Positions 4,448 through 48,727 of a stretch of DNA of 64,000 bases are shown one piece after another. How positions within the stretch are numbered: the first letter of the stretch is position 1; the number at the start of each line of letters is the position of its first letter. The DNA comes from an uncultured Verrucomicrobia subdivision 3 bacterium. GTDB taxonomy: Bacteria > Verrucomicrobiota > Verrucomicrobiia > Limisphaerales > UBA11358. The translations under genes and the position numbers were made by a program. Location of the stretch: assembly GCA_903858275.1 (NCBI GenBank), contig CAIOIC010000136.1:1-64000 (forward strand). Direction: 5' to 3'. A model generated the notes under the pieces. That model made no database searches. It saw only the letters and a list, made by a program, of their open reading frames with translations, and was not told the origin of the DNA.

Positions 4448-4452
4448 ATATG
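4415..4452 (+). repeat. Gene-junction repeat, copy 3 (end of double GNAT / start of sulfatase)
   Basis: The core ATGAGCAAAGTTGAATTGAA encodes the last residues of the GNAT protein (RMSKVELKH) and runs up to the sulfatase start codon. It is closest to copy 4 at 5986, sharing GCAAAGTTGAAYTGAAA and the ending TGAATATGAAA. Confidence 0.5.
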
Positions 4453-12319: not shown

Positions 12320-12342
12320 TTACCTCATTGCCAAACGAGTGT

Positions 12343-12417
12343 GACTGAGGCGGACTGGAAGGTTTCGCTGGAAAATTCCCTGCAAGCTGATTACTTTCCT
12401 TGGCGCAACCCCATTTA
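12343..12417 (+). repeat. 75-base intergenic element, copy B (upstream of toroid glycosidase)
   Basis: Second copy of the element at 8749-8822, starting GACTGAGGCGGACTGGAAGG and ending near CTTGGCGCAACCCCATTTA. It lies 16 bases upstream of the next start codon. The longest unbroken match between the copies is CTGATTACTTTC. No further copy was noticed in this window. Confidence 0.6.
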
Positions 12418-12433
12418 ACCCTGAAGTAAATTT

Positions 12434-27269: not shown

Positions 27270-27307
27270 TTGACTGTTCACGCTCCAAGACGGTAGTTTT
27301 GCGCAAA
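27270..27307 (+). promoter_or_regulatory. Putative promoter with overlapping LacI-type operator
   Basis: A -35-like TTGACT (27270-27275) is followed, 18 bases on, by TAGTTT (27294-27299). Overlapping it is the perfect 10-base palindrome TTTGCGCAAA (27298-27307), with the central CG typical of LacI-family operators. A second symmetric pair, GCGCAA ACCA TTGCGC, spans 27301-27316. The position just before the LacI gene suggests self-repression. No mapped start supports this; it is sequence inspection only. Confidence 0.45.
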
Positions 27308-27349
27308 CCATTGCGCTAGCTAAGCATTTGTGTGAACTCCGTTATGTAA

Positions 27350-28444
27350 ATGCAAAAGAACAAACCTTTGCGCCGCAAAAAAACTTCGCCGCCGGTATCA
27401 GGCATTCTTTCGAATGGGGAGTCGTCGCGCAGTCATACCACGCTCAAGCGAATCGCGAACCAATTGAACGTTTCCATGAGCACGGTTTCGCGAGTGCTCA
27501 GCGGTCAAGCCCGTAGCCATCGGATCAGCCAGCAAACGGAAGCGGCGGTCAGCAATCTTGCCCGCCAGTTCAACTTCGTGCCCAACCAGCTCGCGCGTGG
27601 CTTGCGCTTGAAGAAGACCCTCACCATTGGTTTGGTCATTCCGGACATCTCTAATCCGTTTTTTGCTGGCATCGCGCATCAGGTGGCGTTGGGGGCGCAT
27701 CAGCACGGGTATTCGATTTTGCTCTGTGACAGCCAGGAGGATATTGAACTTGAAATCCAGTCGCTGGGGTTGCTCCGTCATCGGCACGTCGATGGACTGG
27801 CGATTTGTCCCGTCGGCACCTCGGCAAAACATCTGGTGGATTTGGTTCAGGCGCATCTGCCCATCGTGCTGGTGGATCGCTATTTCCAGGACTTGCCGCT
27901 TCCCTATGTTGGCTCGGACAACCTCGCCGGGGCGGTGGAGGCGACGAATTATCTCATTGCGAACGGCCACCGACGCATCGCCTGTCTGCAGGGGCTTCGC
28001 GGAAGTTCGCCGAACGAATTCCGGCTGCGCGGCTATCGGGAGGCGCTTGCGAAAAATCATTTGCCGGAGGATCCGGCGCTGATTGTGGGCTACAGCTTCG
28101 GCGAGCAGAGTGGCTACATTGAAACCAGGCTCCTGTTGCGAGCCCGGAAAGATGTGACGGCCATACTCGCCTTCAGCAATTTGATCGCGCTGGGCGCGTT
28201 GCGGGCGCTGGCGGAGGAGAAGCTGCGGATTCCCGATGATATTTCCATCATCGCCTTTGATGACCAACCTTACGCCGCCCATCTGGCCACACCGATGACC
28301 ACGGTGGCCCAGCCATTCAGCGAGATGGGGGAGGTTGCCGTGAAATTATTGTTTGACCAGATCCAGTCACCCCAACAACAGCCCAAGGGCGGCATTTTGC
28401 TGCCCACCCAGCTGATTGTCAGAAATTCGGTAAAGAAACTTTAG
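27350..28444 (+). CDS. LacI-family transcriptional regulator
   Basis: 364 residues. A basic N-terminal extension of about 30 residues precedes the helix-turn-helix LKRIANQLNVSMSTVSRVLSG (about 32-52). The hinge is NQLARGLRLKKT and the periplasmic-binding-protein-like effector domain starts TIGLVIPDISNPFFAGI. Family members bind palindromic operators and release or bind DNA on sensing a sugar. The gene lies between six glycosidase genes and the FAD-SLH-propeller gene, seven bases from the latter, all on one strand. It is the only recognisable transcription factor in the window and so the best candidate to control this locus. An in-frame later start would cut into the DNA-binding helix, so the ATG at 27350 is kept. 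Confidence 0.9.
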   Translation: MQKNKPLRRKKTSPPVSGILSNGESSRSHTTLKRIANQLNVSMSTVSRVLSGQARSHRISQQTEAAVSNLARQFNFVPNQLARGLRLKKTLTIGLVIPDISNPFFAGIAHQVALGAHQHGYSILLCDSQEDIELEIQSLGLLRHRHVDGLAICPVGTSAKHLVDLVQAHLPIVLVDRYFQDLPLPYVGSDNLAGAVEATNYLIANGHRRIACLQGLRGSSPNEFRLRGYREALAKNHLPEDPALIVGYSFGEQSGYIETRLLLRARKDVTAILAFSNLIALGALRALAEEKLRIPDDISIIAFDDQPYAAHLATPMTTVAQPFSEMGEVAVKLLFDQIQSPQQQPKGGILLPTQLIVRNSVKKL

Positions 28445-31400: not shown

Positions 31401-31676
31401 CAGACCGGCGAAACCGTTTGGAAACTCAGCCCCGGTGACGTGCCCAACAATCCGCTTCGTCTCATCAGCGGATTTCAGCGCCTGCCCGATGGTCATACGC
31501 TCGTGGTGAACTGGCTGGGGCACGGCTACCTCGCCTCCACCGGCCAGTTTTTTGAATTGGATGCGGCCAAGAAGATAGTCCGCCAGTTCACCGACCACAG
31601 CCGTTTTACCAGCATCAACAAAGTGCAACTCCTCGATGTGCCCGGGGATCCGTCGCAAAACGAAATCCTCCGCTAA
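28452..31676 (+). CDS. FAD-dependent oxidoreductase fused to S-layer-like repeats and a beta-propeller
   Basis: 1074 residues in three parts. Residues 1-40 are a long signal peptide. Residues 41-590 form an FAD_oxidored domain (LLIVGGDESGCAAAVQAARLG, LGGQFCTQGIGPMDEW, and the family's GTAAGTVAAVALRDGV near 540). Residues 600-755 resemble S-layer homology repeats (NVTRRELAAALARLV, RFTDVPSTDVDRASIEALL, PLTRAECVDYLYRVL). An acidic loop (GGDDDGDGRNDYNDALPFD, about 757-775) looks calcium-binding and resembles thrombospondin-3 repeats. From 790 to the end is a propeller of repeated (V/I)xxLxNGNxL-type blades (WLLKNGNILFS, PLPDGKVLVVECG, ELANGHLLIACGEG). The fusion suggests an enzyme fixed to the cell envelope. 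The substrate is unknown. Confidence 0.82.
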   Translation: MKHIFNLLKVASRKSLQFSGRIFSLAILQPLLLFSPFGRAETIEADLLIVGGDESGCAAAVQAARLGVKRIVLVNDIQWLGGQFCTQGIGPMDEWTVVDGKRVNFPRSGAFAEIIARIRAYNRQTYGVATPGNSWCGTDTIEPRAAARIFEEWLAPYTEKGSGQIRVLRPWAPVKVVVEKSRVVGVEFSRPDASRSASASYLVVKAALTIDSSDWGDIIRMSGAGYMAGPDLRARFGEASAPGTLSADGRQEMNPISWCPLLREAGKDSTIPKPARYDERSFSDWENVPPWRDWDGSGGIYNFAGWCVYTHRRIVDRYHFGLASGTEAVMLNWPAHDYPLGTLPQPVAAALEKTGVGASRKNIVDLTPEQRRIIFEDAKQRALEFLYFLQTSAHERVGDFPQSFRYMKLADDYGTMDHLPPKPYIREGLRLEALYVLREQDVRTEADHPLWARVMVPDGVFGYQFNIDFHPTRRLFANEDRTQPWQGKHVGARNWSADTDRAMFPLRGLVPVKMDGLLGASKNIGVTSMVQSSLRLHGQMMHVGTAAGTVAAVALRDGVSPREIASSVKRIREVQVRLVRGAGGPGTLIWPWHDVSPEEAHFEAANLLTLAGIWRADKDSVFFLPRQNVTRRELAAALARLVRALPDAPEWPDFPEKPRFTDVPSTDVDRASIEALLTWGDFGKQESSFQPDAPASWGTLHRWLMALKLPEFPSLVVKTSKENFAGRPLTRAECVDYLYRVLQQRGEWFPADKAWLQPGGDDDGDGRNDYNDALPFDRDNNNVPDRIQAPNLALVAKPFGRRALVSDYGGNKVAIVAADGRVEWHFPAEKPQDVWLLKNGNILFSHIRGAQEVTLEKKIVWEYRSPEGTEVHGCQPLPDGKVLVVECGTKRLVEVGRNGKISREISVPVKTVSTHNQMRGSRRTTDGRYLICAKGDRAILELAPDGSLLRSVKTPGDPHEVRELANGHLLIACGEGEALLEVNQTGETVWKLSPGDVPNNPLRLISGFQRLPDGHTLVVNWLGHGYLASTGQFFELDAAKKIVRQFTDHSRFTSINKVQLLDVPGDPSQNEILR

Positions 31677-31711
31677 CTGGATCAATCGCAACTGACCAAC
31701 ATCCTTGCTAA

Positions 31712-34072
31712 ATGTCCATGAATACGAACCTGAACAAAAACACCCTGGGCGGGCTTCGCTTTGCCCTCCTGACCCTGATTGCAGTCGCCTTGCTGACTGG
31801 AAGCGTGAACGCCGCCATAACTCCCATCCCGGAAAAAATCCCGTTAGCGGTTTCCGACAAACAGGATTTTCAAATTCCGGATCGCGTGCAATTGACCGGC
31901 TGGCTCGGCACGCGCATCAACGCCAATGAAGCCAACCGCCTCGTGAAAATTGACACGGACCGCCTGCTGGAGGGCTATCGCAAGCGTCCCGGCCGCCAGT
32001 CGTGGGAAGGTGAACACGTTGGTAAATGGCTGCACGCCGCCACGCTCGCGTGGGTCAACACCGGCGATCCCGCGCTCCGCGCCAAACTCGACCTGACCGC
32101 CGCCGAACTCGCCAAATGCCAGCTCGATGACGGCTATCTCGGCACTTATCTGCCGAAAGAGTATTGGACCTCGTGGGATGTCTGGGCGCACAAATACAAT
32201 CTCATCGGCCTCGTCACTTACATGCGTTACACCGGCAATCTCACGCCTATGCCGACCTGCCGGCGCATGGCCGATTTGCTTTGCAAAAACTTTGGCGACG
32301 GCCCGGGCCAGCGTGATTTGCTCACCGCCGGGGCACAGCACGCCGGCATGGCGTCGAGCAGTGTGCTGGAGCCGATGGTGCTGCTCTATCGCCTGACCGG
32401 TGAGCCGCGCTACTTGGATTTCTGCAATTACATCATCCGTGCTTGGGAGAATCCGAATGGCCCGCACATCGTCTCCACCTTGCTTGGCGTCAAGCGGGTG
32501 GACAAGGTGGGCAATGCGAAAGCCTACGAGATGCTTTCCTGCCTCAACGGTGCGCTGGAACTCTACCGCACCACGGGCAACACCAATTTATTTAACGCCT
32601 GCCTCAACGCGTGGCGGGATATCGTGGACCATCGGCTCTACCTCACCGGCGCGGCCAGCAGCCGCGAGCATTTTCTTGATGACTATGATCTGCCGAACAA
32701 CAACAACGTCGGCGAAACCTGCGTCACCGTCACCTGGCTCCAGTTCAACGCGCAACTCCTGCGGCTGACCGGCGAGGCGCGTTTTGCCGAGCAGCTCGAG
32801 CATGTTGCGCTCAATCAGCTGCTCGGCGCGCAGCAGCCCGATGGCGCGGCTTGGGGCTACTACGTTCAGATGGAGGGAAAGAAGCCTTACAGTGCCACGC
32901 TCACCGGTCACTGCTGTCTTTCCAGCGGTCCGCGCGGCATCGCCTTGCTCCCGACTTTCGCCATTACGACCGATGCCGACGGCGCGGTGATCAATCTTTT
33001 TGACGCCGGCACCGCGCAGCTCACCTTGCGCGATGGCGCGCCGCTGAAGCTGAAAATTGAAACCCTTTATCCCGCCGACGGAAAAATTCGCATCCGCGTT
33101 GAGACGCCTGCGCCAAAAGAATTTTCCCTCAAGCTGCGTCTCCCGGCATGGTGCCAGGAAAGTTCTCTCAAACCTTTCCCGGCTGGAAAACCCGGCGGCG
33201 ATGGCTACACCAGCTTGCGCCGGACGTGGAAAACCGGCGATGTCATCGAATTGAATTTGAAGCTCGAACCCCGCGTCATCGCTGGCGATCACTTGAATCA
33301 GGGCAAAGTCGCCGTGTGCTACGGCCCGCTCGTGCTTGCGGCGGACGAGGCCTTGCTGGCGGAAGCCAGGCAGTCGTTCAACGCCCTCGCCCTGCCCAAG
33401 ACCGACCTCGCCAAGCTCGCCATCGCGTCGGAGCCGGCCATCGTTGGTTGGACCACCTGGCCGGGCGCAAAACTTTTCCGCATCAACGCCACCACGAGGT
33501 CCGGCGATGCGCAATTCGCCACCCGCCTGGTGCCGTTTGCCGATGCCGGCAGCACCGGCGCGCGCTACAAAGTCTGGCTGCCGCTGGCCGGTCAGCCGAA
33601 CGCCAATGTGTTGCTCGACGGCCGCGAAAGTCGTTCGCGATCGGGCAACCTGACCAGTTCCATCAACGACGACGATGTGCAAAGTTTTGTCGTCACGTTC
33701 GATGGCAAGCTGGCTGCCGAAGATTGGTTCGCCGTCACGCTCGCCAAGCCGGTGACGGTCAGTCGCGTGGTGTTTGTGGCCGGGAAAGTCTTTCACGACG
33801 GCGGCTGGTTTGACGCCAGCAAGGGCAAACCGCGCGTGCAAATCCAGCGCACCGCCGGCTCACAATGGGAGACGGTCGGTGAACTCGCGGAATATCCGGC
33901 GACCACGGCCACTGATTTCAAAGGCCTGAAGTGGGGCGGCAACCAGTTCACGCTTAAACTTGCCGCGCCCGTAAACGCTATTGCCGTGCGCGTCAGCGGC
34001 GTGCCCGCCAGCGGCGACAATCCGAAACAGGCGTTTTCTTCGTGCGCGGAACTGCAGGCCTTTGCTGATTAA
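31712..34072 (+). CDS. GH127 beta-L-arabinofuranosidase, exported
   Basis: 786 residues; a signal peptide ends near residue 34 (GSVNAA). The alpha/alpha barrel has the GH127 patterns SWEGEHVGKWLHAATLAW, QLDDGYLGTYLP and NVGETCVTVTW. All four zinc ligands known from GH127 are visible: Glu335 and Cys337 in GETC, and Cys401 and Cys402 in GHCC, one of the latter pair being the nucleophile. The C-terminal 150 residues form a discoidin-like beta-sandwich (QSFVVTFDGKLAAEDWFAV to the end), a likely carbohydrate-binding module. The enzyme removes beta-L-arabinofuranose from plant glycans such as extensins or pectic side chains. It is 24 bases upstream of the first ADP-ribosylglycohydrolase-like gene. 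Confidence 0.91.
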   Translation: MSMNTNLNKNTLGGLRFALLTLIAVALLTGSVNAAITPIPEKIPLAVSDKQDFQIPDRVQLTGWLGTRINANEANRLVKIDTDRLLEGYRKRPGRQSWEGEHVGKWLHAATLAWVNTGDPALRAKLDLTAAELAKCQLDDGYLGTYLPKEYWTSWDVWAHKYNLIGLVTYMRYTGNLTPMPTCRRMADLLCKNFGDGPGQRDLLTAGAQHAGMASSSVLEPMVLLYRLTGEPRYLDFCNYIIRAWENPNGPHIVSTLLGVKRVDKVGNAKAYEMLSCLNGALELYRTTGNTNLFNACLNAWRDIVDHRLYLTGAASSREHFLDDYDLPNNNNVGETCVTVTWLQFNAQLLRLTGEARFAEQLEHVALNQLLGAQQPDGAAWGYYVQMEGKKPYSATLTGHCCLSSGPRGIALLPTFAITTDADGAVINLFDAGTAQLTLRDGAPLKLKIETLYPADGKIRIRVETPAPKEFSLKLRLPAWCQESSLKPFPAGKPGGDGYTSLRRTWKTGDVIELNLKLEPRVIAGDHLNQGKVAVCYGPLVLAADEALLAEARQSFNALALPKTDLAKLAIASEPAIVGWTTWPGAKLFRINATTRSGDAQFATRLVPFADAGSTGARYKVWLPLAGQPNANVLLDGRESRSRSGNLTSSINDDDVQSFVVTFDGKLAAEDWFAVTLAKPVTVSRVVFVAGKVFHDGGWFDASKGKPRVQIQRTAGSQWETVGELAEYPATTATDFKGLKWGGNQFTLKLAAPVNAIAVRVSGVPASGDNPKQAFSSCAELQAFAD

Positions 34073-34096
34073 TTCCAAATCCAGATTAAACCCGAC

Positions 34097-35317
34097 ATGA
34101 AAACTAAAATCATTCTTGCTGTCATTGTCATTGCGAGCTGGTTTGCTGCAACGACTACCACTTTCGGCCAGGATGCCAAGGTCAGCCCCACGCCGTGGGA
34201 GATTTCCCGCGAGCAGTTGCTCGACCAAATCTACGGCGGCTGGGTCGGGATGCTAATCGGCGGCATCGAAGGATTGCCGCATGAATGGAAATATACGAAC
34301 CAGCCGCGTGCGACTCTGCCGGATTTCACCTTTTTGGAAAAGGGCGCGCGGTCGGATGACGATAACGACTTCGAATGGACGCACCTGTGGTTCATGGACA
34401 AGGAAAACGTGCTCAAGCTGCCGTATCCGCGCATCGTCGAAATCTGGAAGGCCAACATGAACCGCGGCATCTGGGTGGCGAACAAAAATGCGCGCAAGTT
34501 GATGGATGAAGGCGTGGTGCCATCCGAAACCGGCAGCGTGGCCCGCAATCCCGCTGCGTGGTTCAATCTCTCCGGCCAGTTCTGCGTCGAGTCCTACGGC
34601 CTGATCGCGCCCGGGATGCCGCAGGCGGCGGCGGACATCGGTCTGCATTACGCGCGCATCGCCGTTTCCGAAGAACCGCTGCAGGCGGCGCAATTCTGGA
34701 CCAGCATCATCAGTCTCCGTGCCTTTCATAACGGTTCAATGGAAGCTGCGCTGCAGCTGGCGCTGGCCGCCGTGGATTCGAGGAGTTGCATGGCCGAAGT
34801 CGTAGCCGATGCGCGCCGGTTATATCATGCGCATCCCGAAGATTGGAAGGCCGCCCGCCAGGAATTTGATAAGAAATGGCGTCTGGAGCGCCGGTGGAAT
34901 AACAATTCCACTCCGGTCAATGGCGGTTTCGTCTGTCTGGCGCTGCTCTACGGTGGCGATGATTTCTATCGCACGATGCAACTGGCGATGGCGATGGGGC
35001 ACGACGCCGACTGCAATGCCGCCACGGCGGGCACGGTGGTTGGCGTTCGCGTCGGCTTCAAGCGCATCGCTGCCATGCCGCAGTTCAAAATGCCCGACCT
35101 TTATGTGAATAAGACGCGCCCTCAGTTGCCCGCTGAAAGCAAGGTAAGTGAGCAGGCGGAAACGCTCTTGCGCGTCGCCGAGCGCGTCATTCTCGCCAAC
35201 GGCGGCGAGCGCGTGACGATTGACGGGAAACCCGGCTACCGAATCAAACTCCAAACACCGCAAGTGTTGGAACGGTTGCCGGAAAATCCCCACGGGCCGC
35301 TCAATAAACCAAAGTAA
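34097..35317 (+). CDS. Exported ADP-ribosylglycohydrolase-like protein 1
   Basis: 406 residues with a signal peptide (1-24, ending TTFGQ). The ADP-ribosylglycohydrolase fold starts with QIYGGWVGMLIGGIEGLPHEW. Metal-site regions are SDDDNDFEWTHLW (about 94-106) and AMGHDADCNAATAG (about 295-308), the latter matching the GxDxDxN signature of the family. ADP-ribosylglycohydrolases cleave N- or O-ribosyl bonds with two magnesium ions. Exported forms accompany ribose-utilisation genes in Bacteroidetes. Together with the transporter, nucleoside hydrolase and ribokinase that follow, a role in freeing ribose from nucleotide sugars outside the cytoplasm is likely, though not proven by sequence. Confidence 0.85.
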   Translation: MKTKIILAVIVIASWFAATTTTFGQDAKVSPTPWEISREQLLDQIYGGWVGMLIGGIEGLPHEWKYTNQPRATLPDFTFLEKGARSDDDNDFEWTHLWFMDKENVLKLPYPRIVEIWKANMNRGIWVANKNARKLMDEGVVPSETGSVARNPAAWFNLSGQFCVESYGLIAPGMPQAAADIGLHYARIAVSEEPLQAAQFWTSIISLRAFHNGSMEAALQLALAAVDSRSCMAEVVADARRLYHAHPEDWKAARQEFDKKWRLERRWNNNSTPVNGGFVCLALLYGGDDFYRTMQLAMAMGHDADCNAATAGTVVGVRVGFKRIAAMPQFKMPDLYVNKTRPQLPAESKVSEQAETLLRVAERVILANGGERVTIDGKPGYRIKLQTPQVLERLPENPHGPLNKPK

Positions 35318-35361
35318 CTCTGAAACAACTCGCCAAACAATCAAACAACGAAACTAATAAA

Positions 35362-36372
35362 ATGCAAATCGTAGAATCTTATCCCATGGCGGTCGCCATG
35401 TGTGTCATCACGATGTTCTGCTGGGGCTCGTGGGCCAACACCCAGAAACTCGCCAGCAAAGAATGGCGTTTCCAGCTTTTCTACTGGGACTATGCCATCG
35501 GCGTGTTCTTGCTCTCATTGCTGCTCGCCTTCACGCTCGGCAGCACCGGCAGCGGCGGACGTGGCTTTCTCGCCGACCTGCACCAGGCCGACAGCAAATG
35601 GCTTTTATCGGCTTTTGTCGGCGGCGTAATTTTCAACCTTTCCAACATCCTGCTCGTCGCGGCGATTGATATCGCGGGCATGGCGGTTGCGTTTCCCGTC
35701 GGCGTCGGGCTGGCGCTCGTGCTGGGCGTCATCACGACTTACATTGCCAAACCCGAAGGCAATGCGCCGATGCTCACAGCGGGAGTGGCGGCGGTGGTCG
35801 TGGCCGTGGTGCTGGATGCGCTCGCCTACAAAAAATTGGCCGCCGCCGGCAAAAAGACGCCGGTGAAAGGCATTGTTCTTTCCGTCGTTGCGGGCGTGCT
35901 GATGGGCTTCTTCTACAGTTTCGTCGCGCAGACGATGGGAAAAATTGACGGCGCAACGCACTTGCTCGAACCTGGAAAATTGAGTCCTTACACGGCCATC
36001 GTGCTGTTCAGCGCCGGGCTGCTCGCATCCAACTTCATCTGGAACAGCATCGTCATGGCGAAGCCGTTCAGCGGCGAGCCGGTGACTTACCGTGATTATT
36101 TCACGAAGGGAAATGTGCGGCTGCACCTCATCGGCATTCTCGGCGGCATGATTTGGAACGTCGGCATGAGCTTCAGCATCATCGCCAGTACCAAGGCGGG
36201 CGCGGCGCTTTCTTACGGCCTCGGTCAGGGCGCGACGATGATTGGCGCGCTTTGGGGTGTGTTCATCTGGAAGGAATTCAAAGGCGCACCGACCGGGACA
36301 AACAAGCTGCTCGCCGCCATGTTTTTGTTCTACCTGATCGGTCTGGCGGTCTTGATCGCATCCAAATCGTAA
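35362..36372 (+). CDS. Sugar/nucleobase uptake permease of the ureide-permease/GRP type (DMT superfamily)
   Basis: 336 residues with about ten membrane segments. The start VESYPMAVAMCVITMFCWGS and the loop YWDYAIGVFLLSLLLAFTLG resemble plant ureide permeases and bacterial glucose/ribose porters of the drug/metabolite transporter superfamily. Further motifs are GGVIFNLSNILLVAAIDIAG, VGVGLALVLG and GLGQGATMIGALWGVFIWKE. It sits between an exported ADP-ribosylglycohydrolase-like gene and an exported nucleoside hydrolase gene, so ribose or nucleosides are the best guess for its cargo. Rhamnose transport (RhaT is a distant relative) is an alternative, given the GH106 gene upstream. No SusC/D pair accompanies it. 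Confidence 0.82.
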   Translation: MQIVESYPMAVAMCVITMFCWGSWANTQKLASKEWRFQLFYWDYAIGVFLLSLLLAFTLGSTGSGGRGFLADLHQADSKWLLSAFVGGVIFNLSNILLVAAIDIAGMAVAFPVGVGLALVLGVITTYIAKPEGNAPMLTAGVAAVVVAVVLDALAYKKLAAAGKKTPVKGIVLSVVAGVLMGFFYSFVAQTMGKIDGATHLLEPGKLSPYTAIVLFSAGLLASNFIWNSIVMAKPFSGEPVTYRDYFTKGNVRLHLIGILGGMIWNVGMSFSIIASTKAGAALSYGLGQGATMIGALWGVFIWKEFKGAPTGTNKLLAAMFLFYLIGLAVLIASKS

Positions 36373-36394
36373 ACCAAAAGCGCGTGCACATATT

Positions 36395-37414
36395 ATGATT
36401 AACCACGTCGTGATTATCTTACTGCTTGCCGCTTCGCTTGTGCAGGCTGAACCCATAAAGCTTATCTTCGACACCGACATGGGCAACGATGTGGACGATG
36501 TCATGGCGCTGTGCATGATTCATAATCTGGTGAATCGTGGCGCGGTGGAACTGCTCGCTGTGACGATCACCAAGGATCATCCGCAGGCGGCGGTTTTCGT
36601 GGGTGCGGTGAACACCTTCTATGGCCATCCCGATGTGCCTATCGGTGTCGTGACCAACGGCGCGACGCCGGAAGCCGGCAAGTTCAACCGGCTGGCCGAC
36701 GCCAGGAACGAAGACGGTTCGCTGCGTTATCCGCACAAGCTCCAGAGCGGTAAATACGCTCCCGAAGCGGTCGGCTTAATCCGCAAGCTGCTTGCCGCGC
36801 AGCCGGACAATAGCGTCACGCTGGTGCAGGTGGGTTTTTTCACGAATTTCCGGCGGTTGTTGGAATCGCCGCCGGACAAACACTCGCCGCTCACCGGTCG
36901 CGAGTTGATCGCGAAGAAAGTCAAGTTGCTCTCGATTATGGCCGGGGCTTTCCAGACCGTGAAGGGGGATAATCGGTATCTGGAATACAACGTCGTCAAA
37001 GACATCCCCGCTGCGCAGTCATTGGTCAGGAACTGGCCCGCGCCGGTGGTCTGGAGCGGCTTCGAGATCGGCGTGGCCGCCGCGTTTCCCCATACGGTGA
37101 TTGAGCATGACTTTGAATATGTGAAGCATCATCCGCTCAAGGAAGCCTACTGCCTCTACGAACCGCCGCCGCACGACCGCCCGACTTGGGATCCGACGGC
37201 GCTGTTGTATGCGGTGTATCCGGAGCGCGGCTACTTTGATCTCTCGCCCTCTGGCACTGTTGCCGTTGAGGACAACGGTGCCACTTGGTTTCGCCCGTCA
37301 CAGAATATCAAGAGTAGCCACCGCTATTTATTGATGAGTGCCGCGCAGGCTGCCCGCGTGCGTGAAGCCATTGTGCAACTCTGCGTTGAACCCGTCATCA
37401 AAGCAAAACTATGA
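36395..37414 (+). CDS. Exported nucleoside hydrolase (IUNH family)
   Basis: 339 residues with a short signal peptide (MINHVVIILLLAASLVQAEP). The calcium-binding signature DTDMGNDVDD is at 26-35. The C-terminal acidic motif is RPTWDPTALLYA near 262-273. Enzymes of this family split nucleosides into ribose and base. Most are cytoplasmic; this one has an export signal, so nucleosides would be cleaved in the periplasm or outside before uptake by the permease encoded 22 bases upstream. Its stop overlaps the ribokinase start by four bases (ATGA), which ties ribose release to ribose phosphorylation. Confidence 0.9.
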   Translation: MINHVVIILLLAASLVQAEPIKLIFDTDMGNDVDDVMALCMIHNLVNRGAVELLAVTITKDHPQAAVFVGAVNTFYGHPDVPIGVVTNGATPEAGKFNRLADARNEDGSLRYPHKLQSGKYAPEAVGLIRKLLAAQPDNSVTLVQVGFFTNFRRLLESPPDKHSPLTGRELIAKKVKLLSIMAGAFQTVKGDNRYLEYNVVKDIPAAQSLVRNWPAPVVWSGFEIGVAAAFPHTVIEHDFEYVKHHPLKEAYCLYEPPPHDRPTWDPTALLYAVYPERGYFDLSPSGTVAVEDNGATWFRPSQNIKSSHRYLLMSAAQAARVREAIVQLCVEPVIKAKL

Positions 37415-38334
37415 ACCCACGTTCCAAAATCGTTGTCGTTGGTAGTTCCAATACCGACATGATCATCCAGCTCGACCGCATTCCGCGTCCGGGCGAAACC
37501 CTCCTCGGCGGCGAGTTCACCAGCGCGGCGGGCGGCAAAGGCGCGAACCAGGCCGTTGGCGCAGCCAGGGCAGGGGGGGATGTCACGTTCATCGCCCGCG
37601 TTGGAAAAGATATTTTTGGTGATCAAGCCGTCGCTGGTTTTCGGAAAGACGGCATCAACGTGAACCATGTGTTCCGTGATGCCGCCGCGCCGTCGGGCGT
37701 AGCGCTCATTTTTGTGGCGAAGGATGGCGAGAACAGCATCGCTGTTGCCGGCGGCGCGAATGGCAAACTTTCGCCAGCCGATGTGAAGCGCGCAGCCAAG
37801 GTCATCCGCTCCGCTGCCGTGCTGGTGGCGCAACTGGAAACGCCGCTGGCGACCGTTCAAGCCGCCGCTGACATCGCCGCGAAAGCCGGGGTGCGTTTCA
37901 TTCTCAATCCCGCACCCGCACGGCTTTTGCCGGACAAATTGTTGAAACGCGTTTCCATTCTCACGCCGAACGAAACCGAGGCGGAACTGCTCACCGGCAT
38001 CAAGGTCATCAACGAAGCCGCCGCCGCGAAAGCCGCGGCCAAATTGCGTTCGCGTGGCGTGCAGACGGTCATCCTCACGCTCGGTTCGCGCGGCGCCTTC
38101 ATCGCTGATGACAGCGGCAATCAACTCGTGGCCGGATTCAAGGTCAAAGCCTTGGACACGACGGCAGCCGGGGATATTTTCAACGGCGCACTGGCCGTCG
38201 CGCTCGCCGAGGGAAAGGCATTGCCCGCTGCCGTGCTTTTTGCCAATGCCGCCGCCGCCATCTCCGTCACGCGCCTCGGCGCGCAACCTTCCGTGCCGGG
38301 TCGAAAGGAAATTGAGAAATTCCTGTTGATATAA
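37411..38334 (+). CDS. rbsK: Ribokinase
   Basis: 307 residues, the normal length. The substrate motif AAGGKGANQAVGAARAG is at 39-55 and the pfkB signature DTTAAGDIFNGALAVAL near 249-265, with the catalytic base Asp255 at the same number as in E. coli RbsK. It phosphorylates ribose at O-5 with ATP in the cytoplasm, feeding the pentose phosphate pathway. It starts in the stop codon of the nucleoside hydrolase gene and is followed 20 bases on by a second ADP-ribosylglycohydrolase-like gene. A decayed copy of its last 22 codons lies at 39958-40026. Other pfkB kinases are possible, but the motifs and neighbours favour ribose. Confidence 0.92.
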   Translation: MNPRSKIVVVGSSNTDMIIQLDRIPRPGETLLGGEFTSAAGGKGANQAVGAARAGGDVTFIARVGKDIFGDQAVAGFRKDGINVNHVFRDAAAPSGVALIFVAKDGENSIAVAGGANGKLSPADVKRAAKVIRSAAVLVAQLETPLATVQAAADIAAKAGVRFILNPAPARLLPDKLLKRVSILTPNETEAELLTGIKVINEAAAAKAAAKLRSRGVQTVILTLGSRGAFIADDSGNQLVAGFKVKALDTTAAGDIFNGALAVALAEGKALPAAVLFANAAAAISVTRLGAQPSVPGRKEIEKFLLI

Positions 38335-38354
38335 AACTAAGAAAAACAAACTTG

Positions 38355-39926
38355 ATGACCAAAAAATATTTTTGTCGGCTTACCGCGCTTGCCGCCGTGG
38401 GCTTGCTCGTCGCCCAAAGCAGCATCGCCCAGTCCGGGCCGCGCACGCTTTCGCGGGAAGTATTGCTCGACAAAATTCGCGGCGCCTGGGCTGGACAGAT
38501 GATTGGCGTGACTTATGGCGCGCCCACGGAGTTTAAATCGCTTGGCAAAATTAACGAACGCCAGATCAAGCCCTACCTGCTCGACAACGCCATTGTTCAG
38601 GACGACCTCTATGTCGAAATGACGTTCGCGCAGGTGATGGACACCGTGGGCCTCGCCGCCACCAGCGCCGACTACGGCGAGGCGTTCAAGCATTCCAAAT
38701 ACAAACTCTGGCACGCCAACGCCGGTGCGCGGCGCAATCTGGATCGTGGCCTCGCCGCACCGTTGTCCGGCGATCCGCGTTACAACATCCATGCGGACGA
38801 TATTGATTTCCAGATCGAAGCCGATTTCATCGGCATCATGTGCCCCGGTCTGCCGCGCATCTCGAATCTATACTGCGACCGCGTGGGCCGCGTGATGAAT
38901 TATGGCGACGGACTTTACGGCGGGATGTTTGTCTGCGGCATGTATTCAGCCGCGTATTTCGAGACCGACCCGCGCAAGGTGGTCGAGGCCGGCCTCGCCT
39001 GCATCCCGGCCAAAAGCCCCTACGCGTTACTCATCCGTGACCTGCTCGCCTGGTCGGCGCAGGAGCCGAATGACTGGCGTAAAGTCTGGCAGCAGGTTGA
39101 AGCGAAGTGGGACAATGATAAGGTCTGTTCCGACGCTGCGTTTCGCAGCTTCAACATTGACGCCAAACTGAACGGCGCCTACCTCGCCTTCGGCCTGCTC
39201 TATGGCAAGGGCGACTGGCAGCAGACCATGGAAATGGCGACGCGCTGCGGTCAGGACTCGGATTGCAATCCCTCTAGCGCGATGGGGATCATGGGCGCGA
39301 TGATTGGCTACGGGAAAATTCCCGGGCAATACAAGCCCGATTTAGACCGGCTCGCCAACACTAAATTCAAATACACCGAATACTCCTACAACGACATCGT
39401 GACATCCACCGAGGTCCGGGCGCACAAAGTCATCCAACAAGCTGGCGGCAAGGTGAGCGACACCGAAGTAGTGATCCCCAGGCAATCGCCCGAGGCGCCG
39501 AAGCTGGAATTGTCCAATTTCGGCGTGCCGGTGAAACTGATTTGGGTGGCGGACGCGGAATGGAATTGGCAGGGCAACTGGGGCGAGAAGACCATAGACC
39601 TCTGGGGCGACAAGGTTCGCATCAAGCAGGCGAACGGCGCGGGCAGTGAAGCCACGCTCAAGTTCAGCGGCACCGGCGTGGCCTTGGTGGGCGATGATCT
39701 TACCACGGATGGCGGACGTGCGGACGTTTATGTGGATGGCAGGAAATGCGAACTGGTGGCCGAGGCCTACATCATGCCGAACACCGTTGATACCGACCTG
39801 TGGCGCATGCACGGCCTGAAGCCGGGCGAGCATACCTTGCGCCTCGTCATGCGCGACGATGCGGACGCACGGAGTAAAGGCAAGAAACTCACCATCAGCC
39901 GGGCCGTCATCTATCAGGCGAAGTAG
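38355..39926 (+). CDS. Exported ADP-ribosylglycohydrolase-like protein 2 with C-terminal beta-sandwich
   Basis: 523 residues from the ATG at 38355; a TTG just before it is in frame but unnecessary. A signal peptide ends at SSIAQS. The catalytic fold (30-360) has KIRGAWAGQMIGVTYGAPTE, the metal motif QDDLYVEMTF near 82 and RCGQDSDCNPSSAMGIMG near 294. A beta-sandwich tail (about 385-523; GDKVRIKQANGAGSEATLKF, GRADVYVDGRKCELV, EHTLRLVMRDD) resembles galactose-binding-like modules and may bind the ribosylated substrate. The two paralogues share fold and export but differ in the first metal motif (QDDLYVE here, SDDDNDFEW in protein 1), suggesting distinct substrates. Activity on ADP-ribose is inferred from family and context. 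Confidence 0.85.
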   Translation: MTKKYFCRLTALAAVGLLVAQSSIAQSGPRTLSREVLLDKIRGAWAGQMIGVTYGAPTEFKSLGKINERQIKPYLLDNAIVQDDLYVEMTFAQVMDTVGLAATSADYGEAFKHSKYKLWHANAGARRNLDRGLAAPLSGDPRYNIHADDIDFQIEADFIGIMCPGLPRISNLYCDRVGRVMNYGDGLYGGMFVCGMYSAAYFETDPRKVVEAGLACIPAKSPYALLIRDLLAWSAQEPNDWRKVWQQVEAKWDNDKVCSDAAFRSFNIDAKLNGAYLAFGLLYGKGDWQQTMEMATRCGQDSDCNPSSAMGIMGAMIGYGKIPGQYKPDLDRLANTKFKYTEYSYNDIVTSTEVRAHKVIQQAGGKVSDTEVVIPRQSPEAPKLELSNFGVPVKLIWVADAEWNWQGNWGEKTIDLWGDKVRIKQANGAGSEATLKFSGTGVALVGDDLTTDGGRADVYVDGRKCELVAEAYIMPNTVDTDLWRMHGLKPGEHTLRLVMRDDADARSKGKKLTISRAVIYQAK

Positions 39927-39957
39927 TCAAAAATCGCACATATCTAACACTTCGGAC

Positions 39958-40026
39958 ACGCGCTTTGTCGCGCAACCTTCCGCGTCGACTCGAATTGAAA
40001 TTGAGTATTTTCTTAAGACTCACTGA
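39958..40026 (+). pseudogene. Decayed C-terminal remnant of a second ribokinase gene
   Basis: Read in frame, this stretch gives TRFVAQPSASTRIEIEYFLK and then TH-stop. The ribokinase at 37411 ends TRLGAQPSVPGRKEIEKFLL. The DNA also matches: 39958-40005 and the end of rbsK share about 40 of 49 bases, including an unbroken GCGCAACCTTCCG. No start or body of the gene remains. It marks a former ribokinase copy behind the second ADP-ribosylglycohydrolase-like gene. The stop codon is preserved at 40024. Confidence 0.7.
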
Positions 40027-40039
40027 AGTTTAGACTTCA
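40024..40039. promoter_or_regulatory. Inverted repeat in the gap before cstA-like gene
   Basis: TGAAGT TTAG ACTTCA is a perfect 6-4-6 inverted repeat, 76 bases upstream of the CstA-like start codon. It has no T-run after it, so it is more likely a protein-binding site than a terminator. Its function is not known. Confidence 0.3.
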
Positions 40040-40114
40040 ACGAAATTCCCTGTCGCGTTTTAGGGCGTGTTGCGGCATTTTTCGTACAAACAATTCACTG
40101 AACACATTTGATTA

Positions 40115-42457
40115 ATGAAAAAAACTTTATCCATATTGCAATGGGTGGGGATTTCCATCCTGGGGGCGTTCGCTTACGCCACGATTGCCTTGCGACGGGG
40201 CGAGTCGATTAATTCCGCCTATCTGCTCATCGCGGCGATCTGCACGTTTGTGATCGGCTGGCGGTTTTATTCAAAATGGATTGCGGCGCGGGTGCTGATG
40301 CTGGATGACCGGCGGGCCACGCCGTGTGAGGTGCATGATGACGGCAAGGATTTTGTCCGGACCAATAAATGGATTGTGTTCGGGCATCACTTCGCGGCGA
40401 TCGCCGGACCGGGGCCGTTGGTGGGGCCGGTGCTGGCGGCACAGTTCGGTTACTTGCCGGGATTGCTTTGGATTTTAATCGGGGTGGTGCTGGGCGGCGC
40501 GGTGCAGGACTTTGTTATTTTGTTCGCTTCGATGCGGCGGGATGGCAAGTCGCTCGGCCAAATGGTGAAGGACGAATTGAATTCCACGGCCGGACTGCTC
40601 GCCTCCGTCGCCATTCTGGCCATTCTCACCATCTTGCTGGCGGTGCTGGCGCTGGTGGTGGTGAAAGTTTTGGCGGAAAGTCCATGGGGCGTGTTCACCG
40701 TGGCGGCCACCATTCCGATCGCACTCACGATGGGATGTTATTTGCGTTATGTGCGGATCGGGAAAGTGCTGGAAGCTTCCGCGTTTGGCGTCGCGTTTCT
40801 GTTGCTGGCGGTTTGGGGTGGGAAACTGGTTTATCAAAGTCCGCATTGGTCGGAAATTTTGGGTTTGCATGACATCACGGTGGCTTGGGTCATCATCGGC
40901 TATGGTATCATTTCCAGCAGCCTCCCGGTCTGGCTGCTGCTCGCGCCGCGGGACTACTTGAGCACATTCATGAAGTTGGGCACGATTGCCGCGCTGGCCT
41001 TGGGAATTTTCTTTGTGCTGCCGGATCTGGCCATGCCGGCGGTCAGCCGTTTTGTGGACGGCTCGGGGCTGGTGGTGGCGGGGAAGCTGTTTCCATTTTG
41101 TTTTATCACGATTGCCTGCGGTGCCATCAGCGGGTTTCACACGCTCATTGCCAGCGGCACGACGCCGAAGATGATTACCCGCGAGAGTTACTCCCGTCAT
41201 ATCGGCTATGGCGCGATGTGCTGCGAAGCGTTTGTGGCAGTCATGGCGCTGGTGGCCGCTTGCACCCTTGAGCCGGGCGTTTACTTGAGCATGAATGTCA
41301 AAGGCGACCCCGCCGCGACCGTGGCGAAAGTCACCGAATTGGGTTTTCCCGTAACCGTCGCGCAGATGGATTCGCTGGCGGGCGAGCTTGGTGAAAAAAC
41401 CTTGTTTGGCCGCACCGGCGGCGCAGCGACGCTGGCCGTGGGCATGGCCCACATCTTTTCAAAAGTGACCAACGGCCGGTGGCTCGATCTCTGGTATCAC
41501 TTTGCGATCATGTTCGAGGCGTTGTTTATTTTGACCACGCTGGACGCGGGCACGCGCGTGGGGCGTTATCTGATTCAGCAGGTGCTGGCGAAAATCTGGC
41601 GGCCGCTCGGCGATACAAAAAATGTCCGCGTCATTCCGCTGGCCAGCGCAATCATGGTTGGCGCCTGGGGATATTTCTTGATTCAAGGCGTGCGTGATCC
41701 GCTGGGCGGTATCAATTCGCTCTGGCCGTTGTTCGGAATCGCCAACCAGATGCTGGCGGCGATGGCGTTGTGTTTGGCCACCACCATCATTCTTAAAAAA
41801 CAGCTGCTGCCGGGCGATGAAACCCGTCGTCGGTATCCGGCCTTCATGCTGATCACGCTGGTGCCGCTGGTTTGGCTGCTGGCGGTCACGATGACGGCGG
41901 GCGTGGAAAAAATGTTCCATTCCGATCCGCGCATCGGCTTCTTGGCGCAGGCCCGGGTCTTGAATGATAAGCTTCCCGCGCTTCAATCCGCCGTCGCCGT
42001 CGCCGTGTCGGCGCATGATGCCGAAGCCGTCGCGTCGGCGCAGAAAGCGGTCAAGGCGAACCGCACCTTGCATTTCAACAACGTGCTGGATGCCGTCGTC
42101 ACGGGAATTTTTCTGACGCTGGCGGCGGTGATTGTGGTGATCAGTGTCCGGGAATGGGTTTTGCTATTGCGGCGCAAAAAGGTGGCGCTGCTCTCGGAGA
42201 CCGAACCGGTCTGGCTGCCGGGTTATGCCATCAAAGAGGCCGGGCAGGATTTGCGGCCGATTGCCGGGGCGGCGGCGATGACGCTGATGCTGGCCAAAGA
42301 GTTGTCCGGTGAGGCGAGCCTCGATCGCGCCCGCCAGCAATCAACCACCTGTGTCTGCGATGCTGCCAAGCATTCGTCCAGTGCGACCAAGACCGAAGGA
42401 CAGCTTTATTTGGAAACTACCGAGCATCGTTTCAACGGCGTGCGGAGATGTTGCTGA
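40115..42457 (+). CDS. CstA/BtsT-family transporter (carbon starvation protein)
   Basis: 780 residues, somewhat longer than the roughly 700 of E. coli CstA and BtsT. Many membrane segments are evident. Family motifs are FGHHFAAIAGPGPLVGPVLA (about 88-107), VQDFVILFASMRRDGKSLGQ, SGFHTLIASGTTPKMI and the C-terminal-half ANQMLAAMALCLATTIILKK. Family members import pyruvate or peptides when carbon is scarce. The last 80 residues are a hydrophilic tail ending in two cysteines (GVRRCC), with CVC further up; this is not usual for the family. The start has no ribosome binding site, only TTTGATTAATG. Its position between ribose and xylan genes fits control by nutrient supply. Confidence 0.9.
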   Translation: MKKTLSILQWVGISILGAFAYATIALRRGESINSAYLLIAAICTFVIGWRFYSKWIAARVLMLDDRRATPCEVHDDGKDFVRTNKWIVFGHHFAAIAGPGPLVGPVLAAQFGYLPGLLWILIGVVLGGAVQDFVILFASMRRDGKSLGQMVKDELNSTAGLLASVAILAILTILLAVLALVVVKVLAESPWGVFTVAATIPIALTMGCYLRYVRIGKVLEASAFGVAFLLLAVWGGKLVYQSPHWSEILGLHDITVAWVIIGYGIISSSLPVWLLLAPRDYLSTFMKLGTIAALALGIFFVLPDLAMPAVSRFVDGSGLVVAGKLFPFCFITIACGAISGFHTLIASGTTPKMITRESYSRHIGYGAMCCEAFVAVMALVAACTLEPGVYLSMNVKGDPAATVAKVTELGFPVTVAQMDSLAGELGEKTLFGRTGGAATLAVGMAHIFSKVTNGRWLDLWYHFAIMFEALFILTTLDAGTRVGRYLIQQVLAKIWRPLGDTKNVRVIPLASAIMVGAWGYFLIQGVRDPLGGINSLWPLFGIANQMLAAMALCLATTIILKKQLLPGDETRRRYPAFMLITLVPLVWLLAVTMTAGVEKMFHSDPRIGFLAQARVLNDKLPALQSAVAVAVSAHDAEAVASAQKAVKANRTLHFNNVLDAVVTGIFLTLAAVIVVISVREWVLLLRRKKVALLSETEPVWLPGYAIKEAGQDLRPIAGAAAMTLMLAKELSGEASLDRARQQSTTCVCDAAKHSSSATKTEGQLYLETTEHRFNGVRRCC

Positions 42458-42474
42458 ACTTCGGTTTTATTTTT

Positions 42475-44073
42475 ATGAAACAATTAATCATATCACTATT
42501 CCTTGTGCAGGCCGTTCTTGCGGCTCCATCAACGACGAATCACGACATCGTTGTCTATTCCGGCGTGCCGTGCGGCATCGCGGCTTCCATCACGGCGGCG
42601 CGCGAAGGCGCGAAGGTTGTGCTCATCGAGCCGACTAAGCATGTTGGTGGACTTAGCACGAGCGGCATCAACACCGCCGAAACCGAGCACATGCTGAAGT
42701 GGACCATCGGCGGGTTTGCCGATGAGTTTTATCGGCGTATGGGGAAGATATATGGCACCGGACAGCCGGCGTATTACTTTGAATCGAGCGTCGCGGAGAA
42801 GGTTTATCTTGAAATGCTCAAGGAAGCCGGCGTGGAGGTGCGCTACGGCGCGAGCGTGGATAAAGTGACGAAGGACGGAGCGGAGATTACAAGCATCACC
42901 TTGACCGATGACACAATGCTCACGGCGAAGGTGTTTGTGGATGCGAGCTATGAAGGCGATCTCATGGCGCGGGCGGGTGTGAAGTATGCAGTGGGTCGCG
43001 AGTCGAAGGCGGAGTTTGGCGAGGAAGCGGCGGGAATTCGTTTTGATAAAACACCGCGCAAAGCCCGCACGGTGGACGCCAACGGCAGGTTGCTCCCCGG
43101 CATCAGCGCGTGGGCAAAAGACTTGAAGGAGGGTGAAGCGCATCGCGCGCCGATGAACTACAACTTTCGTCTCACCGTTGCGAAGGACCCGAAGCTGCAA
43201 GTTCCCATTCCCGCGCCGAAGCACTATGACGCTACGAGATATTCATTGCTCGGCGATTGGCTGCGCGATCGGGCAATGCAGAAGAAGCCGGTGAAGCTTT
43301 ACGATATAATCGATCTCTATCCGCAGCGGAACGGCAAGTTCGAATTGAATAACAAGCAGTCGGCCATCTTTTCGCTCGGGCATTTCGGCGGGCAGTTTGA
43401 TTGGCCGGATGCTAGCTATGAGCAGCGCGCCCGAATCTACGGGGACCACCTGGACTACACGCTTGGTTTGCTCCAATTTCTTGCTACCGATGCCTCCGTG
43501 CCCACGAACGTTCAGGCGGAGATGAAGATGATTGGCCTGCACAAAGAAGAATTCGCCGACAATGGTAATCTGCCTTACCAGCTCTACGTCCGCGAAGCCC
43601 GCCGCATGCGAGGCGAGTATGTGATGACGCAGTCAGATGTGCAGACCGACCGCCGCAAGCCCGACAGCATCGGCATGGGCAGCCACTTCATTGATTCTCA
43701 TCATGTCCAGCGCGTCGCTCTGAACGAAAACGAGTTTGTCAACGAAGGCCGCATCTGGCGCATCGGCTGGGCAAATCAGATTCCGTATCGCGCCCTTACG
43801 CCGAAGCCCGCCGAGTGCTCCAATCTTCTCGTCCCCGGAGCCGCCAGTTATTCGCACGTCGCCTTCTGCACCCTTCGCCTCGAAAGCACCTGGATGGTCG
43901 TTGGTCAGGCGGCTGGCGTAGCCGCCGCGATGGCTGCGAAAGATGACCTCGATGTCCAAAAGGTGAGCGTCCCGGCCTTGCAAGCCAAACTGCGCACCGG
44001 TCAACAAGTCATCGACTTCATCCCGGGCCAACCCGAGAGGTGCGAGCGCCTGAACGGGCCGCCGGAGTTTTAA
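42475..44073 (+). CDS. Sec-exported FAD-dependent oxidoreductase (FAD_oxidored family)
   Basis: 532 residues from the ATG at 42475, which begins a clean signal peptide (MKQLIISLFLVQAVLAAP). An in-frame ATG at 42448 overlaps the CstA gene and would bury the signal, so it is rejected. The FAD region reads DIVVYSGVPCGIAASITAAR then LIEPTKHVGGLSTSGINTAE. Family motifs are VFVDASYEGDLMARAGVKYA, QLYVREARRMRGEYVMTQSD, PYRALTPKPAECSNLLVPGA and STWMVVGQAAGVAAAMAA. No Tat motif is present, unlike the homologue at 14371. The substrate is unknown; it precedes a GH10 xylanase gene. The gene is separated from that one by 168 bases. Confidence 0.87.
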   Translation: MKQLIISLFLVQAVLAAPSTTNHDIVVYSGVPCGIAASITAAREGAKVVLIEPTKHVGGLSTSGINTAETEHMLKWTIGGFADEFYRRMGKIYGTGQPAYYFESSVAEKVYLEMLKEAGVEVRYGASVDKVTKDGAEITSITLTDDTMLTAKVFVDASYEGDLMARAGVKYAVGRESKAEFGEEAAGIRFDKTPRKARTVDANGRLLPGISAWAKDLKEGEAHRAPMNYNFRLTVAKDPKLQVPIPAPKHYDATRYSLLGDWLRDRAMQKKPVKLYDIIDLYPQRNGKFELNNKQSAIFSLGHFGGQFDWPDASYEQRARIYGDHLDYTLGLLQFLATDASVPTNVQAEMKMIGLHKEEFADNGNLPYQLYVREARRMRGEYVMTQSDVQTDRRKPDSIGMGSHFIDSHHVQRVALNENEFVNEGRIWRIGWANQIPYRALTPKPAECSNLLVPGAASYSHVAFCTLRLESTWMVVGQAAGVAAAMAAKDDLDVQKVSVPALQAKLRTGQQVIDFIPGQPERCERLNGPPEF

Positions 44074-48649: not shown

Positions 48650-48727
48650 CATGAAAAACGAGCATGGATTTCAATGAGCGGGCCATTATCAATCTCGAAA
48701 GAAAGTAATTTCATCAATCAAGTATTC

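What the first reader, a model, noticed from the sequence alone, without database searches (positions are those of the whole stretch)
34097..39926. Ribose/ADP-ribose scavenging operon outside Bacteroidetes, with every release step exported
Five consecutive genes encode two exported ADP-ribosylglycohydrolase-like proteins, a ureide-permease/GRP-type transporter, an exported nucleoside hydrolase and ribokinase, with gaps of 20-44 bases and one overlap. Established knowledge: Bacteroides ribose-utilisation (rus) loci combine a ribose transporter, ribokinases, nucleoside hydrolase and ADP-ribosylglycohydrolases. Seen here: the same roles but no SusC/D, and three signal peptides. Inference: nucleosides and ADP-ribose-like compounds are cleaved in the periplasm, and ribose is imported through an unusual permease type.
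Basis: partly seen in the sequence, partly recalled or inferred. Interest (0 to 1): 0.72.

Follow-up and report, generated by a model that had tools for sequence, protein, structure and literature searches.

The report
Ribose-release and uptake operon
A bacterium of the phylum Verrucomicrobiota carries a LacI-controlled operon that appears to cut ribose off larger molecules outside the cytoplasm, import it and phosphorylate it; it is a wider relative of a system described in Bacteroidetes, and its unusual exported ADP-ribosylglycohydrolase-like enzymes look built for sugar polymers rather than for ADP-ribose.

Summary
The operon is larger than described: it starts at a LacI-type regulator (27350) with a conserved palindromic operator (27301-27316) and includes an FAD-oxidoreductase and a GH127 gene before the first ARH gene. 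The conserved core is permease plus ribokinase. It recurs across many phyla, Bacteroidota included, so neither the permease nor a non-Bacteroidetes occurrence is exceptional. Ribokinase passes both curated equivalog cut-offs. Nucleoside hydrolase (NH) and ARH-like genes are optional, non-randomly linked partners, and the sister genome lacks ARH2. The ADP-ribose part is not supported: ARH2 keeps the catalytic Glu/Asp set, but two metal-site threonines are replaced in 28 of 28 relatives. Its ARH-fold domain is joined to a CBM35-like module, and relatives share a module with, or are fused to, GH127. The NH carries the variant aspartate motif of HopQ1/XopQ, which showed no activity on standard nucleosides. 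Best reading: a RUS-like ribose operon whose exported enzymes release ribose from ribosides, probably ribofuranosyl glycans. Substrates were not tested. New variant of a known kind.

The parts
27301..27316 (.). predicted LacI-type operator GCGCAAACCATTGCGC (6-base arms), overlapping promoter-like TTGACT (27270) / TAGTTT (27294); a second weaker copy at 27358-27373
   Evidence: Same 16-mer in sister L010. The palindrome GCRCAAACGTTTGCGC (up to 2 mismatches) occurs in 1.7 Mb of loci only at six LacI-by-permease loci (L010, L046, L047, L086, L095, L125); 1 hit in a block shuffle. Within the window alone the pattern is not above chance at 2 mismatches.
27350..28444 (+). LacI-family regulator, first gene of the operon, probable ribose (RbsR-like) repressor
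   Evidence: PF00356 and PF13377; homologues beside the permease in L046 (79%), L047, L051, L083, L086, L095, L096, L103
28452..31676 (+). FAD-dependent oxidoreductase with beta-propeller; lineage-specific insertion, role unknown
   Evidence: PF12831 plus PF22701; absent at this place in sister G016
31712..34072 (+). exported GH127-family glycosidase (beta-L-arabinofuranosidase-like) with a C-terminal accessory module (635-786)
   Evidence: PF07944 and PF20736; 24-base gap to ARH1; its module is 64-68% identical to the C-terminal modules of ARH2-type proteins in L045, L085, L046; fused to ARH2 in L046
34097..35317 (+). ARH1: exported ARH-fold (PF03747) hydrolase, 406 aa
   Evidence: orthologues 91% in L010, 72% in L085
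35362..36372 (+). ribose permease candidate, PF07168/GRP (DMT superfamily), 336 aa
   Evidence: near ribokinase in 71 of 80 named loci
36395..37414 (+). exported nucleoside-hydrolase-fold protein with variant motif DTDMGNDVDD
   Evidence: PF01156; model pLDDT 81.8, Z about 29 to nucleoside hydrolases and 28.4 to XopQ-ADP-ribose 4p5f
37411..38334 (+). ribokinase
   Evidence: above both curated ribokinase cut-offs
38352..39926 (+). ARH2: exported ARH-fold domain (33-373) plus CBM35/CE2-N-like beta-sandwich (391-523)
   Evidence: PF03747; model pLDDT 88.7, ARH3 Z 30.8 and CBM35 2w1w Z 12.3
40115..42457 (+). CstA-family transporter, downstream neighbour; may be co-transcribed
   Evidence: PF02554; follows ribokinase by about 100 bases in sister L010, 188 bases after ARH2 here

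Best explanation
This is a LacI-regulated ribose-acquisition operon, a non-Bacteroidota cousin of the RUS (ribose utilization) loci. GH127, ARH1, NH and ARH2 are exported. They hydrolyse ribofuranosyl bonds (NH an N-glycosidic or related riboside bond; the ARH-fold enzymes more likely O-ribofuranosyl bonds in glycans or glycoconjugates) and release free D-ribose in the periplasm. The PF07168/GRP permease carries ribose across the inner membrane, and ribokinase makes ribose-5-phosphate for the pentose phosphate pathway. A LacI-type repressor on the operator at 27301-27316 switches the unit on when ribose or a derivative is present. Shown here by sequence: the gene content, the true ribokinase, the recurrent permease-kinase pairing, non-random linkage of the ARH genes, the conserved operator, and the ARH fold joined to a sugar-binding-like module. 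Inferred: ribose as the transported sugar, export, the substrates, and induction.
For: Ribokinase above two curated cut-offs. Permease near ribokinase in 71 of 80 named loci from many phyla. PF03747 genes cluster with the permease: 7 of 30 within 10 kb against 0.14 expected, P about 1.5e-10; 4 against 0.12 without the window and its sister, P about 8e-6. Operator conserved from Verrucomicrobiota to Bacteroidota at LacI-permease loci. Bacteroidales locus L195 is RK-NH-permease-SusC-SusD with 53%, 37% and 58% identity to the window's proteins. The RusR regulon of B. thetaiotaomicron includes RusT, proposed to import free ribose (PMC12596196). Glycan link: CBM35-like module on ARH2, module sharing and fusion with GH127, esterases, AXE1, GH78 and GH172-type (DUF2961) genes next to related permease loci.
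Against: No biochemistry for any member. ADP-ribosylated substrates are not excluded by sequence, and a PF01663 nucleotide-pyrophosphatase-type gene lies near two related loci (L015, L141), though not here. Sister G016 has no ARH2, so ARH2 is not needed for the core. The B. thetaiotaomicron rus proteins themselves could not be obtained for comparison.
Confidence: 0.66

Rival explanations
1. One reading: ADP-ribose-like compounds and nucleosides are the food. ARH1 and ARH2 remove ADP-ribose from exported or dead-cell proteins and nucleic acids, NH cleaves nucleosides, and ribose is imported.
For: ARH and NH folds are sound. The catalytic Glu and four Asp are invariant in 28 of 28 ARH2 relatives. 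XopQ, which shares the NH aspartate motif, binds ADP-ribose (PMC8910321).
Against: ARH cleavage yields ADP-ribose, not ribose, and no pyrophosphatase or phosphatase was seen in the operon. The two metal-site Thr are replaced in all ARH2 relatives. The CBM-like module and the GH127 fusion point to glycans.
Confidence: 0.2
2. Plain nucleoside scavenging: NH is a normal periplasmic nucleosidase (as Nuh of Pseudomonas aeruginosa) supplying ribose. The ARH genes and GH127 belong to the neighbouring polysaccharide gene cluster and are there by proximity.
For: NH fold match is close to nucleosidases (Z 29). Trp265-Asp266 resembles the Trp-Asp of purine-specific NHs (from memory). Sister G016 lacks ARH2. 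A periplasmic adenosine hydrolase precedent exists (PMC5522865).
Against: ARH2-type genes recur near permease/kinase in 30 of 80 loci against 12 of 80 for NH, and clustering is far above chance. NH carries the DxxxDxDD motif of proteins without standard nucleosidase activity.
Confidence: 0.2
3. The operon serves another pentofuranose (for example D-arabinofuranose or apiose units) from a plant or microbial polysaccharide. GH127 and GH172-type enzymes release it and the PfkB kinase phosphorylates it.
For: GH127 in the operon; DUF2961 (GH172-type) genes next to permease-kinase in L014, L015 and upstream in the window; a large glycosidase cluster around the operon.
Against: Kinase scores above curated ribokinase cut-offs with no other kinase family near cut-off; N-ribosyl-hydrolase-like genes are repeatedly linked.
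Confidence: 0.12

Closest known systems
RUS / rus loci of Bacteroidetes (BT2803-2809, Glowacki et al. 2020; RusR regulon in PMC12596196)
   Same: ribokinase, candidate ribose permease, exported NH-type and ARH-type hydrolases, ribose-specific operon
   Different: LacI-type regulator with its own operator, no SusC/D, single ribokinase, GH127 included. The B. thetaiotaomicron proteins were not compared directly; an unnamed Bacteroidales RK-NH-permease-SusC-SusD locus was (L195).
ARH / DraG ADP-ribosylhydrolase family (ARH3, DraG)
   Same: fold (Z 30.8 to ARH3), catalytic Glu and both Asp pairs in place
   Different: exported; CBM35-like module; metal-site Thr replaced by Gln/Tyr/Asn and Cys; only 14% identity to ARH3 over the aligned structure
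Nucleoside hydrolases (Rih/IU-NH) and the XopQ/HopQ1 branch
   Same: fold (Z about 29), Asp-rich metal site
   Different: DTDxGxDxDD in place of DTDxGxDD; signal peptide; substrate unknown
Sde_0182-type NH-like proteins (PF07632)
   Same: NH-like proteins tied to carbohydrate use; one lies inside the homologous operon of Cecembia lonarensis (L105)
   Different: the window's protein is a plain PF01156 member without the Sde_0182 C-terminal domain

Membership tests
Ribokinase (RbsK) | score above curated equivalog cut-offs | tested here: met
   NF008353 387.9/341; TIGR02152 365.1/299.65
RUS/rus ribose-utilization locus | ribokinase + ribose permease + NH and/or ARH hydrolase in one operon | tested here: met
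   same set in Bacteroidota L101, L105, L137, L140, L141, L189, L195
RUS/rus ribose-utilization locus | SusC/SusD pair and RusR-type regulator as in B. thetaiotaomicron | tested here: not met
   no SusC/D among the Pfam-scanned genes at 28452-44073; the regulator is LacI-type. Some Bacteroidota relatives also show no SusC/D in the parts examined.
RUS/rus ribose-utilization locus | homology to the B. thetaiotaomicron RusT/RusNH/RusGH proteins | not tested
   those sequences were not reached; homology to a Bacteroidales SusC/D-bearing locus was found
ADP-ribosylhydrolase (ARH/DraG) | PF03747 fold | tested here: met
ADP-ribosylhydrolase (ARH/DraG) | metal-site Glu, T-D-D and D-x-D-T residues | tested here: not met
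   E60, D84, D85, D302, D304 kept 28 of 28; both Thr replaced 28 of 28 (ARH2 family). ARH1 has S-D-D and D-A-D-C.
ADP-ribosylhydrolase (ARH/DraG) | hydrolysis of an ADP-ribosyl bond | not testable with these tools
   needs assay
Nucleoside hydrolase | NH fold | tested here: met
   PF01156 above cut-off; Z about 29
Nucleoside hydrolase | canonical N-terminal DXDXXXDD motif with no insertion | tested here: not met
   DTDMGNDVDD; from Asp28 it reads DxxxDxDD as in HopQ1
GH127 | PF07944 + PF20736 above cut-off | tested here: met
   NCBIfam aceric acid hydrolase far below its cut-off

The most novel reading that the evidence does not exclude
The exported ARH-fold proteins with carbohydrate-binding-like modules (ARH2 family) are a new glycosidase family that removes ribofuranosyl residues from glycans, working with GH127, and the ADP-ribosylglycohydrolase label on them in many phyla is wrong.
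Probability: 0.35. Interest if true: 0.7.

Novelty: new variant of a known kind. Interest (0 to 1): 0.46.

Why it matters
It widens ribose scavenging from gut Bacteroidetes to a multi-phylum system with one shared permease-kinase core and interchangeable exported hydrolases. It also names a testable protein family (PF03747 domain, [Q/Y/N]-D-D-x-Y and G-x-D-x-D-C-N-P motifs, CBM-like module) whose database name probably misleads. If these enzymes release ribose from glycans, a missing activity in polysaccharide breakdown would gain candidate genes.

Tried and rejected
The Glowacki 2020 paper on rus is not in the library, and searches for BT2807-2809 found nothing useful. The literature search for exported ARH proteins in polysaccharide loci returned no paper; the one for ribofuranosidases gave no listed paper holding the word 'ribofuranosidase'. 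Anti-phage defence (ART/ARH or NADase type) was considered and dropped: no PADLOC hit for ARH1, NH or ARH2, and the proteins look exported. A solved relative of the permease: none by sequence. Direct PDB sequence hits for ARH1 and ARH2 were insignificant, so fold comparison was used. The operator pattern in the window alone is not above chance at 2 mismatches; it counts only because it is conserved across loci. No other genome of the same genus was seen to carry both ARH genes.
Full report
WHAT IS THERE. The five genes exist as described with Pfam families above cut-off: ARH1 and ARH2 PF03747, permease PF07168, nucleoside hydrolase (NH) PF01156, kinase PF00294. The kinase is a ribokinase by two curated NCBIfam cut-offs. 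The window lies in a 3.66 Mb, 94% complete assembly. The order-mates that share the permease include a contig titled Verrucomicrobia (L068 matches G050 in contig length), so the phylum is taken as Verrucomicrobiota.

THE UNIT IS LARGER. Just before LacI sits TTGACT (27270) / TAGTTT (27294), overlapped by GCGCAAACCATTGCGC at 27301. Scanning 1.7 Mb of fetched loci for GCGCAAACGTTTGCGC with up to 2 mismatches gave hits only at six loci where a LacI gene lies beside or near the permease. These span sister G016, other members of the phylum and Bacteroidota (Maribacter L086, Mariniphaga L095, Prolixibacteraceae L125); one hit appeared in a block shuffle. In the window alone the pattern is not significant. 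The reading is an inference: a conserved operator of a ribose-type LacI regulator.

CORE AND PARTNERS. A permease search found it in 6 of 58 close relatives beside the window's own genome (patchy even within the genus) and 28 of 388 genomes of the phylum, counting the window's genome and some partial matches. A scan of named genomes gave 567 confirmed relatives, with more beyond the limit; the best 80 come from Bacteroidota, Verrucomicrobiota, Planctomycetota, Gemmatimonadota, Marinimicrobia, KSB1, Ignavibacteria, Acidobacteriota and others. In these 80 loci, ribokinase lies within 10 kb in 71, ARH2-type in 30, NH in 12, GH127 in 7 and LacI in 7. So permease + ribokinase is the conserved core and the hydrolases are modular. 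The sister G016 has LacI-GH127-ARH1-permease-NH-RK-CstA with no ARH2 and no FAD oxidoreductase. G176 has LacI-ARH2/GH127 fusion-permease-RK. Linkage of PF03747 genes to the permease is far above chance: 7 of 30 within 10 kb, 0.14 expected; without the window and its sister 4, 0.12 expected, P 8e-6. The count includes related genomes, so treat P as indicative.

RELATION TO RUS. Bacteroidota loci with the same genes include L101, L137, L140 and L141 (RK, ARH2 and NH beside the permease), Cecembia lonarensis L105 (RK-ARH2-Sde182-NH-NH-permease) and a locus from the order of L101 with RK-NH-permease-SusC-SusD (L195), whose proteins are 53, 37 and 58% identical to the window's. RusT in B. thetaiotaomicron is proposed to import free ribose and is induced on ribose (PMC12596196). 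The original rus paper and sequences could not be read here, so identity of this permease with RusT is an inference.

ARH PROTEINS. The ARH2 model (pLDDT 88.7) has an ARH3-like domain at 33-373 (Z 30.8, 2.8 A over 296 residues) and a beta-sandwich at 391-523 like CBM35 (2w1w, Z 12.3) and the CE2 N-domain (2waa, Z 13.5); Pfam also sees CE2_N weakly there. In 28 aligned relatives Glu60, Asp84, Asp85, Asp302 and Asp304 are invariant, while the position of the first metal-site Thr is Gln (15), Tyr (12) or Asn (1), and the second is Cys in all. Alignment to MJ1187 and DraG places these at T-D-D and D-x-D-[ST]. The C-terminal module of the operon's GH127 is 64-68% identical to C-terminal modules of ARH2-type proteins in L045, L085 and L046, and in L046 ARH2 and GH127 are one 1200-residue protein. 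Related permease loci carry three ARH genes with two esterases (L185; L188 and L192 show the same gene order), AXE1 and GH78 (L193), or GH172-type DUF2961 (L014, L015). Together this points to sugar polymers. ARH action on ADP-ribosyl bonds would also yield ADP-ribose, for which the operon shows no gene that would free the ribose.

NH PROTEIN. The model (pLDDT 81.8) has the NH fold, Z about 29 to nucleosidases and 28.4 to XopQ with ADP-ribose. Its motif DTDMGNDVDD holds DxxxDxDD, the variant of HopQ1, for which no activity on standard nucleosides was found (PMC3608555); XopQ is inactive on common nucleosides but binds ADP-ribose (PMC8910321). The plain NH genes aligned from these operons, Bacteroidota included, share the variant spacing. 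So 'cleaves nucleosides' is plausible, not shown.

VERDICT. Observation confirmed; interpretation partly supported. Ribose acquisition is well supported by sequence. 'Outside Bacteroidetes', 'unusual permease', 'no SusC/D' and 'exported release' are all common in this wider family. The ADP-ribose assignment rests on a family name. The more interesting and testable point is that the exported ARH2 family may be a glycan-acting ribosidase.

Noticed in passing
L054 and L061 (about 11960-12964 and 4260-5270): NH is 80-82% identical to the window's NH although permease, ribokinase and ARH2 in the same loci are only 43-60% identical, suggesting separate horizontal transfer of the NH gene.
   Followed up: partly
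window 28452-31676, 42448-44073, 46130-50359 versus L010: FAD-oxidoreductase (PF12831) genes and a GH88-family gene are present here but absent from the same places in the otherwise syntenic sister genome G016.
   Followed up: no
window 1-52000: The operon sits in a long run of glycosidase and related genes (GH106, GH97, GH3, DUF2961/GH172-type, GH36-like, GH10, GH88, sulfatase) mostly on the + strand.
   Followed up: no
L185, L188, L192: Bacteroidales-order permease loci with three tandem PF03747-type genes and two further genes (putative esterases in L185) but no ribokinase detected within about 10 kb.
   Followed up: partly
L046 4405-8007: Single 1200-residue ORF joining an ARH2-type domain to a complete GH127.
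   Followed up: yes
L100, L106, L098: Arrays of several NH-like genes, some about 600-730 aa, partly with an ETDMCxDVDD-type motif, next to the permease.
   Followed up: no
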